A DNA stretch of 64,000 bases from Pseudomonadota bacterium (GTDB lineage: Bacteria; Desulfobacterota; Binatia; Binatales; Binataceae), in contig JAJPHI010000009.1 of assembly GCA_021325355.1 (NCBI GenBank), positions 248,001 through 312,000 of the forward strand. The letters are read 5' to 3'. Below, piece after piece: positions 14,816 through 18,783 of this stretch. The position numbers were made by a program, and so were the translations under genes. The notes below the pieces were generated by a model. That model saw only the letters and a program-made list of their open reading frames with translations, was not told where the DNA came from and did no database searches. Numbering within the stretch: position 1 is the stretch's first letter; the number at the start of each line of letters is the position of its first letter.

Positions 14816-17425
14816 TCAAGCGGCGGCGCTTTGACCCTCGCGGCTGCGGAACTCGAGCCCGCGCGGACCCGCGTCCACCACCACATGGGCGCCGTCGCGA
14901 ATCTCACCGGCGATCAGCTTGCGGCCGAGCGCGGTCTCCACTTCGCGCTGAATCAATCGCCGCAGCGGCCGCGCTCCATAGACCGGGTCGTAGCCCTGCT
15001 CCGCCAGATGGTCGCGCGCGCGGTCGGTCAGTTCGAGCTCGATCTTGCGCTCGGCCAGCCGCTGGCGCAGCCGCGCCAGTTGAATATCGACGATCGGCCG
15101 CAACTGCTCTCTGGTCAGCGGATGGAACACCACGATCTCGTCGACGCGGTTCAGGAACTCGGGCCGGAAGCTTTGCCGCAACACCTCGAGCGCCTGCTCC
15201 TTCATCCGCTCGTAATCGCGGCCCTTGTACGAAAGGATCTGCTGGCTCGCGATATTCGAGGTCATGATGACGACGGTGTTCTTGAAATCGACCGTCCGCC
15301 CGTGGCCGTCGGTCAAGCGTCCGTCATCCAGCAGTTGGAGGAGCACGTTGAAGACGTCGGGATGCGCCTTTTCGATCTCGTCCAACAGGATGACCGAGTA
15401 GGGACGGCGGCGCACGGCCTCGGTCAACTGCCCACCCTCGTCGTAACCGACGTAACCGGGAGGCGCGCCGACCAGCCGCGAGACCGTATGCTTCTCCATG
15501 TACTCGGACATGTCGATCCGCACCATCGCCGCTTCGTCATCGAACAAAAACTCCGCTAGGGCACGGGCGAGTTCGGTCTTGCCGACGCCGGTCGGCCCCA
15601 GAAAGATGAAAGAACCGATCGGACGATTGGGATCCTTGAGGCCCGCGCGCGCCCGAATCACCGCGTCGGCCACGGCCGCCACCGCTTCGTCCTGCCCGAT
15701 AACGCGCTTGTGCAGATGCTCTTCCAGATGGGCGAGCTTCTGGACTTCGCCTTCCATCAGACGCGCGACCGGGATCCCGGTCCAGCGGGCGACCACCTCG
15801 GCGATATCCTCCTCGTCCACTTCCTCCTTGATCAGGCGCGACTTCGCCGGACCGTTCTCGGCCTTCTCGGCTTCGGCGAGCTGCTTTTCAAGCCCGGCGA
15901 GCCTGCCGTACTGGAGCTCGGCCACCTTGTTCAGGTCGTACTCGCGCTTGGCCTTGTCGATCTCGTGGCGGGTCTGCTCGATCGCGCTCTTGATTTGGGA
16001 CAACCGCTCGAGGCTGCCCTTCTCGCTTTGCCACTGCGCCTGCAGTTCGGCCTTGCGCGCGTTCGCCTCGGACAATTCCTTTTCGAGCTTCTCCAGGCGC
16101 TCGCGCGAGGCCGGGTCGGTCTCACGCTTGAGCGCCTCGCGTTCGATCTCGAGCTGCATCACGCGCCGATTCGCTTCGTCGAGCTCGACCGGCATCGATT
16201 CCTTTTCGGTGCGGAGTTTGGCCGCGGCTTCATCGACCAAATCGATCGCCTTGTCGGGCATGAAGCGATCGGTGATGTAACGCTTCGACAGCATCGCCGC
16301 GGTCACCAGCGCCGCGTCCTTGATGCGGATTCCATGATGGACTTCGTAGCGCTCCTTGAGCCCGCGCAGAATCGAGATGGTATCCTCGATACTCGGCTCC
16401 TCGACCATCACCGGCTGAAAGCGCCGCTCCAACGCCGCGTCCTTCTCGATATGCTTGCGATACTCGTCGAGCGTGGTGGCGCCGATACAATGCAGTTCGC
16501 CGCGCGCGAGCATCGGCTTGAGTAGGTTCGACGCGTCCATCGCGCCTTCGGCGGCGCCGGCACCGACCACCGTGTGCAGCTCGTCGATGAACAGAATGAT
16601 CTCGCCCTCGCCCTCCTGCACTTCCTTGAGGACGGCCTTCAGACGCTCTTCGAACTCGCCGCGATACTTGGCCCCGGCGACCAGCGCCCCCATGTCGAGC
16701 GCGATGATCCTGCGGTTTTTGAGCCCCTCGGGAACGTCGCCGGCGACGATACGCTGCGCCAATCCCTCGACGATGGCGGTTTTGCCGACGCCGGGCTCGC
16801 CAATCAGCACCGGGTTGTTCTTGGTGCGACGCGACAGCACCTGGATCACGCGGCGAATTTCCTCGTCGCGGCCGATCACCGGATCGACCTTGCCCGCGGC
16901 GGCGAGCTTGGTCAGATCGCGTCCGTACTTTTCCAGCGCCTGGTAGGTGGCTTCGGGATTGGGCGAGGTGATGCGCTGATTGCCGCGCACCTTTTTAAGC
17001 GTGGCCATCAGCTTGTCATGGGTGAGACCGCCCTCGCGCAGAATCCGCGCGGTGGCACCCGACTCGTCGAGCATCGCGATGAGCACGTGTTCGAGCGAAA
17101 CGTACTCGTCGGTGAGCTTGCCGGCCTCCTGCTCCGCGCGCGCCAGCACGCGGCTCAGCCGCTGCGTCATGTAGGTCTGGCCGGTGTCGGCGCCGCTGCC
17201 GCTGACGCTCGGGACCTTGCGCAGCTCGTCACTGAGCTTCTGCCGTATTGCGGCCGGATCGACGCCCGCAAGCTTGAGGACCGAGGCCGTCAAGCCTTGA
17301 TCATCCTCGAGCATCGCGGCGGCGAGATGCTCGACATCGACCGCCTGATGATGGGCGCTGACGGCGAGATTCTGGGCTCGGCCGAGCGCCTCCTGCAATT
17401 TTTCCGTAAAGCGACCGGGATTCAT
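14816..17425 (-). CDS. clpB: ATP-dependent disaggregase ClpB
   Basis: Two AAA+ modules ([16 protein letters not shown]), Clp_N domain, coiled-coil middle domain. Confidence 0.97.
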
Positions 17426-17488
17426 TTAACGCCTCATGTTCAAGCTAACCATCCCGGGCGTAAGGGCAAGCCGGAGGGAGCGAGCGGC

Positions 17489-17510
17489 CGATGTTTCACG
17501 TGAAACATCG
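17489..17510. promoter_or_regulatory. parS: parS centromere-like site (ParB/Spo0J binding)
   Basis: 22-bp perfect palindrome CGATGTTTCACGTGAAACATCG containing the exact 16-bp consensus TGTTTCACGTGAAACA at 17492-17507. Confidence 0.93.
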
Positions 17511-17820
17511 CGGGAAACGCCGACAGCTTACGAGCTTTCCCCAGGAATTTTCGACTTCTTCCCAGGTTTCTGCGGGATACGAGGTCGGGCCGCTTGACGG
17601 AGGGGCCGAGCCTGGTTCTCGGTCACAGCGAGCTCGCGTTGAGTCGCGGGCGGTCAGAAGACGGCGCGGCCGGGACGTTGAGTGTCACGCCGAGCGCATC
17701 GGGCCGCGATTAATGCGCTGCAACTCACCCGTATCGAAATGTTTCGTTGCGCAACTGCGGAGTCGTGTTTAGCTTCTGCGCAGCCTTCAATGTCACTCGA
17801 TGAGCGAGGAGGGGCTCGCT

Positions 17821-18783
17821 ATGGGCGCGTGGGATTTTCTCGCGGGCGGAAGAGAAATGGGCGCGCTGATACGGGCCACCGATTGGGCGCGCACGCCGTT
17901 GGGATCGCCCGAGCAGTGGCCGGACATTCTCCGCACGACGCTGGCGGTCGCCCTGGAAACTCTCTTCCCGACGGCGATCTTATGGGGTCCGGAGTTACGC
18001 CTGCTTTACAACGATGAATATCGGGAGTTGCTGGGCAGCAGGCATCCACAAGCCCTCGGCCAACCGGCCGAAGAATGCTGGCCCGAGGCGTGGGATGTCG
18101 TTGGTCCGCTGCTGTTAGGGGTGCTGAGCGGCCGCGGCGCGAGTCTGCTGCGCGACTGGCCGCTCGAACTGAAGCGGCAAGGATTGCTCGAGGAGACCTA
18201 CTTTACGTGCTCTTTCAGTCCGATTCCGGATGGCACGCGGACGGCTGGCGTGTTGACTATGTGTTACGAAGTAACCGACAAGGTGATAAACGAGCGACGG
18301 TTGCGCACGCTGACTGCCACGCTGCCGCCCGGCAATCCGCCTGCGCCGGCGGAAGCAGCGCCGTCGGCCGCAGAGGGTCAGCGCAAGGAGCAAACGTTGC
18401 AGGGCAAGCGGGTACTGCTGGTCGATGACGATATCGATACGGCGCAAACCCTCGCGGCATTATTTGCCGTTAAGGGAATGAGCGTCGCGCTCGCTTATTC
18501 CGGGAAGGAAGCGATCGCAAAGGCCGCGGAGTTTGAACCTGAGCTGGTGCTGCTCGATCTGGGACTGCCGGATATGGATGGGTACGCGCTGGCCGCCCGC
18601 CTTTGCGCGACCGTGGCGGCGCGACCGATCATTATGGCCTTGACCGGATACGGCCATAGCGAAGCGCGTGAGCGTTCTCGTCGAGCGGGTCTCGACGGCC
18701 ATCTGGTCAAGCCGGTCGACCCGGATGCGGCCGTACAGGAGATGGCGCAAAAACTCGCGGCACGACGAACCCAACCCGCCTGA
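17821..18783 (+). CDS. PAS-like sensor domain fused directly to a response-regulator receiver domain, no kinase core
   Basis: LIRATDWARTPLGSPEQWPDILRTTL...AILWGPELRLLYNDEYRELLG then KRVLLVDDDIDTAQTLAALF...LVLLDLGLPDMDGYAL...LVKPVDP; GAGGAGG precedes the ATG at 17821 (17800 also possible). Confidence 0.82.
   Translation: MGAWDFLAGGREMGALIRATDWARTPLGSPEQWPDILRTTLAVALETLFPTAILWGPELRLLYNDEYRELLGSRHPQALGQPAEECWPEAWDVVGPLLLGVLSGRGASLLRDWPLELKRQGLLEETYFTCSFSPIPDGTRTAGVLTMCYEVTDKVINERRLRTLTATLPPGNPPAPAEAAPSAAEGQRKEQTLQGKRVLLVDDDIDTAQTLAALFAVKGMSVALAYSGKEAIAKAAEFEPELVLLDLGLPDMDGYALAARLCATVAARPIIMALTGYGHSEARERSRRAGLDGHLVKPVDPDAAVQEMAQKLAARRTQPA

What the first reader, a model, noticed from the sequence alone, without database searches (positions are those of the whole stretch)
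17489..17510. Perfect parS centromere site upstream of clpB
The intergenic gap between clpB and a divergent gene holds TGTTTCACGTGAAACA, the canonical ParB/Spo0J parS sequence, extended to a 22-bp perfect palindrome. parS sites normally mark the origin-proximal domain. I found no parA/parB in the window, so this appears to be a dispersed site next to clpB, and it may also affect the clpB promoter.
Basis: partly seen in the sequence, partly recalled or inferred. Interest (0 to 1): 0.78.

Follow-up and report, generated by a model that had tools for sequence, protein, structure and literature searches.

The report
Centromere site marking a putative extra origin
The perfect ParB-binding (parS) palindrome next to clpB is real, and it is one of thirteen parS places in this uncultured bacterium at each of which the strand composition flips as it does at a replication origin, suggesting a bacterial chromosome that starts replication at many centromere-marked places instead of one.

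Summary
Confirmed: window 17489-17510 is a perfect 22-bp palindrome containing canonical parS. The genome (Candidatus Binatia/Binatota relative) has one ParB, with parA and nine parS at one locus, plus 15 further perfect copies of the 14-bp core at 12 dispersed intergenic loci; no copy has exactly one mismatch. The clpB link is incidental: none of 29 family relatives searched has parS beside clpB. Eleven of the twelve dispersed sites, including this one, sit in a composite element: parS, two DnaA-box-like motifs 22 bp apart, and TTGAC at 56-57 bp. The important result is GC skew: it jumps from minus to plus at all 12 dispersed sites (each at least 0.105; background sd 0.029, max 0.106) and declines gradually between them. 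An unconstrained fit of a 479-kb contig puts its breakpoints at 104, 264 and 408 kb; the parS sites are at 107, 265.5 and 407 kb. A second genus (G022) repeats this at other genes. Best explanation: secondary, centromere-marked replication origins on a multi-origin bacterial chromosome. Skew is indirect, historical evidence; marker-frequency data are needed.

The parts
17489..17510 (.). perfect 22-bp palindrome CGATGTTTCACGTGAAACATCG; parS core GTTTCACGTGAAAC at 17493-17506
   Evidence: core identical in 24 genomic copies with no one-mismatch copy
17536..17551 (+). box 1 (TTTCCCCAGGAATTTT), a degenerate copy of the DnaA-box-like motif TATCCACAGGAAATTT found at 11 of 12 dispersed parS loci
   Evidence: at up to 2 mismatches the box1-46N-TTGACA pattern occurs in this genome only at parS loci
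17558..17570 (+). box 2 (CTTCCCAGGTTTC), 22 bp after box 1; the weakest of the conserved blocks
17593..17599 (+). CTTGACG block, 56 bp after box 1 (TTGAC is invariant at 56-57 bp in all 11 composite copies)
14816..17425 (-). clpB (869 aa), a neighbour; association with parS not conserved
   Evidence: TIGR03346; no parS at <=2 mismatches in the clpB flanks of 29 relatives
17443..17470 (-). promoter-like CTTGCCC-N10-ATGGTTAGCTT of clpB, recurrent in the family, between parS and clpB
   Evidence: read from the family's upstream regions; inference
17800..18783 (+). divergent gene with a response-regulator receiver domain
16000..18000 (.). GC-skew minimum: skew about -0.07 to -0.12 to the left (1-16 kb), +0.06 to +0.11 to the right (16-24 kb); cumulative minimum near 16894

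Best explanation
The palindrome is a ParB-binding site within a roughly 110-bp intergenic element. That element and its dispersed counterparts at eleven other loci most likely act as secondary, centromere-marked replication origins. Replication starts bidirectionally at or beside them in some fraction of cells or generations, in addition to the main origin at the parAB locus, and ParB bound to parS organises or segregates each newly started region and may load SMC. Shown here: the motif, the composite, the single ParB, and an origin-type skew flip at every dispersed site in this genome and at the sampled sites of a second genus. Inferred: that the flip is caused by replication starting there, that it still happens, that ParB binds, and that the DnaA-like boxes recruit DnaA in this species.
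For: 12 of 12 dispersed sites have an upward GC-skew jump of at least 0.105 over +-4.5 kb (mean 0.144); 3265 positions more than 9 kb from any site have mean -0.007, sd 0.029, max 0.106; the highest of 200000 random draws of 12 was 0.031. The nine largest jumps in the 10-kb-window scan are all at parS loci, and no other exceeds 0.051. The cumulative-skew minimum is within 1.9 kb of parS at 13 of 13 loci. A free three-break fit of contig C20 gives 104/264/408 kb against parS at 106.8/265.5/407.0 kb, R2 0.81. Between sites the skew falls gradually through zero (106.8 to 265.5 kb: +0.138 to -0.105), as expected where forks from neighbouring origins meet. The flip is present at third codon positions of genes on both strands (left -0.29 and -0.07; right +0.09 and +0.25), with gene orientation balanced. 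The sign is the same as at the main parAB locus. G022, another genus with sites beside other genes, has its six largest jumps at its six sampled parS loci, and G001 has 8 of 8 positive, mean 0.068. DnaA boxes are enriched near the sites in this genome, 8 against 0.28 expected.
Against: Skew is indirect and records history; no replication profile was available. DnaA boxes at <=1 mismatch are absent beside the dispersed sites of the other genomes, and at the clpB copy they are degenerate. The smc-side copy lacks a proper composite yet has a jump of 0.218. In G016, G027 and G024 the dispersed sites show little or no jump, so parS is not always accompanied by one. At the main locus the skew flips at parAB, 29 kb from dnaA-dnaN where the only DnaA boxes of that region were seen. 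To the right of the clpB site the plus skew fades within about 10 kb, and the minus-strand rpoA/ribosomal-protein genes there would meet forks from this site head on. clpB itself has no unusual third-position skew. A control genome without dispersed sites could not be read. In Bacillus subtilis relocating or adding parS does not change initiation (PMC7614844).
Confidence: 0.6

Rival explanations
1. Strand asymmetry is produced by ParB/SMC, not by replication starts: SMC loaded at each parS travels outward in both directions and biases mutation or repair symmetrically around parS, while replication uses one origin.
For: parS is the only element common to all sites; the flip at the main locus also sits on parAB, not on dnaA; the smc-side site flips without a proper composite; other genera lack DnaA boxes beside the sites.
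Against: No mechanism is known to me by which SMC exposes one strand; the size, sign and gradual mid-interval decline are those of replication; G016, G027 and G024 have dispersed parS with little or no flip; a constant one-origin background, which should be about -0.2 over all of contig C20 if its right end adjoins the main origin, is absent.
Confidence: 0.13
2. The sites are former or alternating origins: the main origin has repeatedly moved between parS loci, or different lineages or cells use different ones, and the skew is the remembered sum.
For: Skew integrates over evolutionary time; jump sizes differ between sites (0.105-0.218); site positions turn over quickly between genera.
Against: All 24 cores are perfect with no one-mismatch decay products, and the composite spacing is held exactly, which speaks for present function.
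Confidence: 0.15
3. Ordinary dispersed parS sites (ParB/SMC organisation, gene regulation or nucleoid occlusion) that happen to lie at skew switches created by rearrangements.
For: Dispersed parS exist in Pseudomonas aeruginosa and Bacillus subtilis (PMC4368675); inversions can move skew.
Against: Inversions make as many downward as upward abrupt jumps, but all 12 jumps at the sites are upward and the descents are gradual; the coincidence repeats in a second genus at other genes.
Confidence: 0.05
4. A clpB regulatory site bound by ParB or a transcription factor.
For: The palindrome is 64-85 bp upstream of the clpB start.
Against: Absent beside clpB in 29 relatives; 23 identical cores lie beside unrelated genes.
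Confidence: 0.03

Closest known systems
Chromosomal parABS with parS clusters near oriC
   Same: Same 16-bp consensus; one parA-parB locus with nine sites; ParB of the canonical family with the N-terminal LGRGLEAL motif
   Different: 15 further perfect sites at 12 loci spanning at least half of the chromosome (arithmetic), each at a local skew minimum; [quoted passage not shown]
Dispersed parS of Pseudomonas aeruginosa PAO1
   Same: parS also outside the cluster nearest oriC
   Different: There the six other sites are imperfect palindromes with weaker binding; here all are perfect and sit in composite elements with skew flips
Multi-origin archaeal chromosomes and skew domains of eukaryotic origins
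   Same: Upward skew jumps at origins with gradual decline between them (from general knowledge; PMC3320577 among the hits)
   Different: A bacterium with DnaA, ParB and SMC; each putative origin carries a centromere site
Proposed or reported multiple origins in bacteria (double oriCs by Z-curve, PMC4403523; asynchronous multi-site replication of some cyanobacteria, PMC7198777)
   Same: More than one origin per bacterial chromosome
   Different: Those are double oriCs beside dnaA, hemE or parB, or undefined sites with irregular skew; here about 13 discrete loci share a sequence signature and a regular saw-tooth

Membership tests
parS (ParB/Spo0J site) | Palindrome matching TGTTNCACGTGAAACA | tested here: met
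   0 mismatches
parS (ParB/Spo0J site) | Cognate chromosomal ParB beside ParA, with clustered sites | tested here: met
   ParB at C19:6334 is the only ParB_N match; nine sites at C19:3738-7267; ParA-like ATPase directly upstream
parS (ParB/Spo0J site) | Bound by ParB | not testable with these tools
   needs ChIP-seq or EMSA
parS (ParB/Spo0J site) | Lies in the origin-proximal fifth of the chromosome | tested here: inconclusive
   The set of sites spans at least 50% of the genome; the distance of this copy to the main cluster is unknown because contigs are unordered (about 219 kb if contig C20 adjoins C19)
Noc binding site (NBS) | ATTTCCCGGGAAAT-type site and a Noc paralogue | tested here: not met
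   parS-type core; one ParB only, which scores 188 bits against a Noc cut-off of 315 and 165 against a ParB cut-off of 58
Bacterial replication origin | Local minimum of cumulative GC skew | tested here: met
Bacterial replication origin | Cluster of at least three DnaA boxes | tested here: not met
   At most two box-like motifs per element; 28-fold enriched overall, but degenerate at this copy
Bacterial replication origin | Replication starts there (depth maximum, autonomous replication) | not testable with these tools
   no reads or cultures
Mobile element | Copies similar end to end, or known relatives in phages or plasmids | tested here: not met
   In this genome only blocks and spacing are conserved; no match in phages or plasmids. 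In G022 longer repeats surround the sites

The most novel reading that the evidence does not exclude
Members of a Binatota family replicate one bacterial chromosome from a dozen or more discrete origins, each carrying its own ParB centromere site, with ParB-parS specifying where secondary origins lie; the sites are gained and lost quickly between species.
Probability: 0.5. Interest if true: 0.96.

Novelty: new variant of a known kind. Interest (0 to 1): 0.86.

Why it matters
That a bacterial chromosome is limited to one origin is treated as a rule, and why bacteria do not use several is an open question (PMC10331603). A lineage with about 13 origin-like loci that share a sequence signature makes that question testable: read depth from existing metagenomes would show whether all are used. 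It would also link centromere sites to origin placement, and would mean that GC-skew-based origin and growth-rate estimates fail in this lineage.

Tried and rejected
clpB regulation: no conservation. Known RNA: Rfam finds only two tRNAs near the sites. Phage or plasmid origin: no matches. Promoter reading of TTGACA: by eye no consistent -10 box follows it in this genome and several copies point into the end of a convergent gene. Noc sites: no Noc paralogue. Gene-orientation artefact: the flip holds for genes on both strands. Inversions: all steps at the sites are upward and no downward step of like size follows. TA skew: no consistent jump, mean -0.008. clpB third-position skew as a natural control: uninformative. 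A second DnaA_C-domain protein at C20:476 kb was looked at as a possible special initiator; its neighbours look phage-like, and it was not pursued. A first alignment of clpB flanks mixed orientations and was discarded. The ClpB scan of named genomes gave the phylum but no record of this genome itself.

Full report
1. The site. Window 17489-17510 reads CGATGTTTCACGTGAAACATCG, a perfect 22-bp palindrome and the longest in the window. It contains the parS consensus without mismatch. It lies 64 bp upstream of the clpB start, in the gap to a divergent receiver-domain gene. The window is contig C20:248001-312000 of a 3.36-Mb, 35-contig genome. The nearest named ClpB is from a Candidatus Binatia bacterium at 74%, so this is a member or close relative of the phylum Binatota.

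2. Genome-wide set. The 14-bp core GTTTCACGTGAAAC occurs 24 times, and not once with exactly one mismatch. Nine copies surround parA-parB at C19:3.7-7.3 kb. The only ParB_N protein of the genome is there, a canonical ParB by family and structure matches. Fifteen copies lie at 12 dispersed loci, all intergenic on inspection: one falls within the long reading of an open frame whose likely start is downstream. Position -2 is A in 47 of 48 half-sites. The contigs bearing sites sum to 2.07 Mb; even with the two largest outer overhangs removed, the sites span at least 1.69 Mb, half of the genome (arithmetic). [quoted passage not shown]

3. Not about clpB. In 29 family relatives (most with clpB 80-89% identical), including the congener G001, no core with up to two mismatches lies in the clpB flank that was read. 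Across six genomes of the family rich in sites, the parA-parB locus is the only parS locus shared by all. The dispersed ones lie beside different genes, with a few shared between near relatives. Numbers vary from 0 to 24 per genome in the family and 0 to 3 in the rest of the class.

4. A composite element. When oriented, 11 of the 12 dispersed loci of this genome share parS, then at 39-45 bp from the start of the core a DnaA-box-like TATCCACAGGAAATTT, 22 bp later a second weaker box, and TTGAC exactly 56-57 bp after the first box. The spacers are unrelated in sequence but constant in length, which points to constraint on geometry. A search of the whole genome for box 1 and TTGACA at this distance finds, with up to two mismatches, only parS loci. 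The main parAB cluster lacks it. Other species carry other companion motifs: in G001 the motif CGCTCTTGCANGATCG occurs at up to one mismatch nine times, seven of them at parS loci; G022, G016/G027 and G024 have their own repeats around the sites. DnaA boxes are enriched near the sites in this genome (8 seen, 0.28 expected) and absent there in the others.

5. GC skew. Sampled stretches covering 1.27 Mb, including nearly all of contig C20, show a saw-tooth. At every dispersed site the skew steps up from left to right: 12 of 12, each at least 0.105, mean 0.144. Among 3265 positions away from sites the mean is -0.007, sd 0.029 and maximum 0.106. The sites were found by sequence alone, so this is an unbiased test. 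The nine largest steps in the 10-kb scan are all at parS loci and nothing else exceeds 0.051. Cumulative-skew minima fall within 1.9 kb of parS at 13 of 13 loci. A piecewise-linear fit of C20 with three free breaks places them at 104, 264 and 408 kb; the parS are at 106.8, 265.5 and 407.0 kb. Between the first two sites the skew falls from +0.138 to -0.105, crossing zero in the interior. The effect is present at third codon positions of genes on both strands with balanced gene orientation, so it is not a coding-strand effect. In the window itself the skew goes from -0.07 to -0.12 over 1-16 kb to +0.06 to +0.11 at 16-24 kb.

6. Repetition in a second genus. In G022 (another genus of the family, sites beside other genes) the six largest steps in the sampled 0.4 Mb are at the six sampled parS loci. 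G001 is positive at 8 of 8 dispersed loci with enough flank (mean 0.068, SE 0.017); G016, G027 and G024 show little or nothing.

7. Interpretation. A minus-to-plus skew step with gradual decline on both sides is the classical mark of a bidirectional origin, and the main parAB locus shows it most strongly (C20 right end -0.19, inferred to adjoin it; C19 left part +0.22). The simplest reading is that the dispersed parS elements are secondary origins, used often enough over evolution to imprint skew but less than the main one. Inversions would give equal numbers of downward steps. A ParB/SMC-driven mutational asymmetry would have to be invented and would be expected in all genomes with dispersed parS. 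What remains open is whether the sites are used now, whether all fire in one cell, and what the initiator is: DnaA is present as one full-length gene 29 kb from parAB, but its boxes are not a constant part of the sites across genera.

8. Prior art. Reviews state a strict limitation of bacteria to one origin (PMC10331603). Double origins were proposed from Z-curves (PMC4403523). Some cyanobacteria replicate asynchronously from multiple undefined sites and have irregular skew (PMC7198777). Ori-Finder 2022 cites Achromatium and a single-chromosome Vibrio cholerae with two functional origins (PMC10225481). In B. subtilis moving or adding parS does not alter initiation (PMC7614844), so parS alone is not an origin there. 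No paper was found on origins in Binatota, nor on parS-marked multiple origins.

9. Limits. This is a draft, probably metagenome-assembled, genome with unordered contigs. Skew is indirect. Only part of the genome was read, and the site-free contigs C12 and C17 were not profiled. A site-poor control genome could not be read. The head-on position of the rpoA/ribosomal-protein genes to the right of the clpB site and the short reach of plus skew there suggest that this particular copy is at most a modest origin.

Noticed in passing
window 17491-17772 (+): The palindrome opens a spurious reading frame beginning MFHVKH; the same MFHVK start arises at other parS sites and would mislead gene callers.
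   Followed up: partly
L034 5422 (G000 C14:187.4 kb): One dispersed parS lies just upstream of smc, the gene for the condensin that ParB loads; its skew step is 0.218 although it lacks a proper composite.
   Followed up: partly
L120, L124, L126, L128, L130 (G001): The congener carries dispersed arrays of 2-4 sites, many about 70-120 bp apart and with an altered centre (GTTTCACGCGAAAC), a possible shift of ParB site preference.
   Followed up: no
L140-L155 (G022): Sites are embedded in a repeat of about 65-70 bp, many as long perfect palindromes (GCGAAGATGTTTCACGTGAAACATCTTCGC), at different genes: apparently young interspersed elements.
   Followed up: partly
L347 about 1408-1815 (G000 C20:476 kb): Small protein consisting largely of a DnaA domain-IV match, among phage-like genes near the end of the contig inferred to adjoin the main origin.
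   Followed up: partly
G000 C20 and C25: All three composite elements on C20 have the same orientation, as do the two on C25; possible polarity relative to the chromosome was not tested.
   Followed up: no
L346 and L027 (G000 C19): dnaA-dnaN with three DnaA-box-like sites lies 29 kb from parAB, yet the skew switch is at parAB, not at dnaA.
   Followed up: partly
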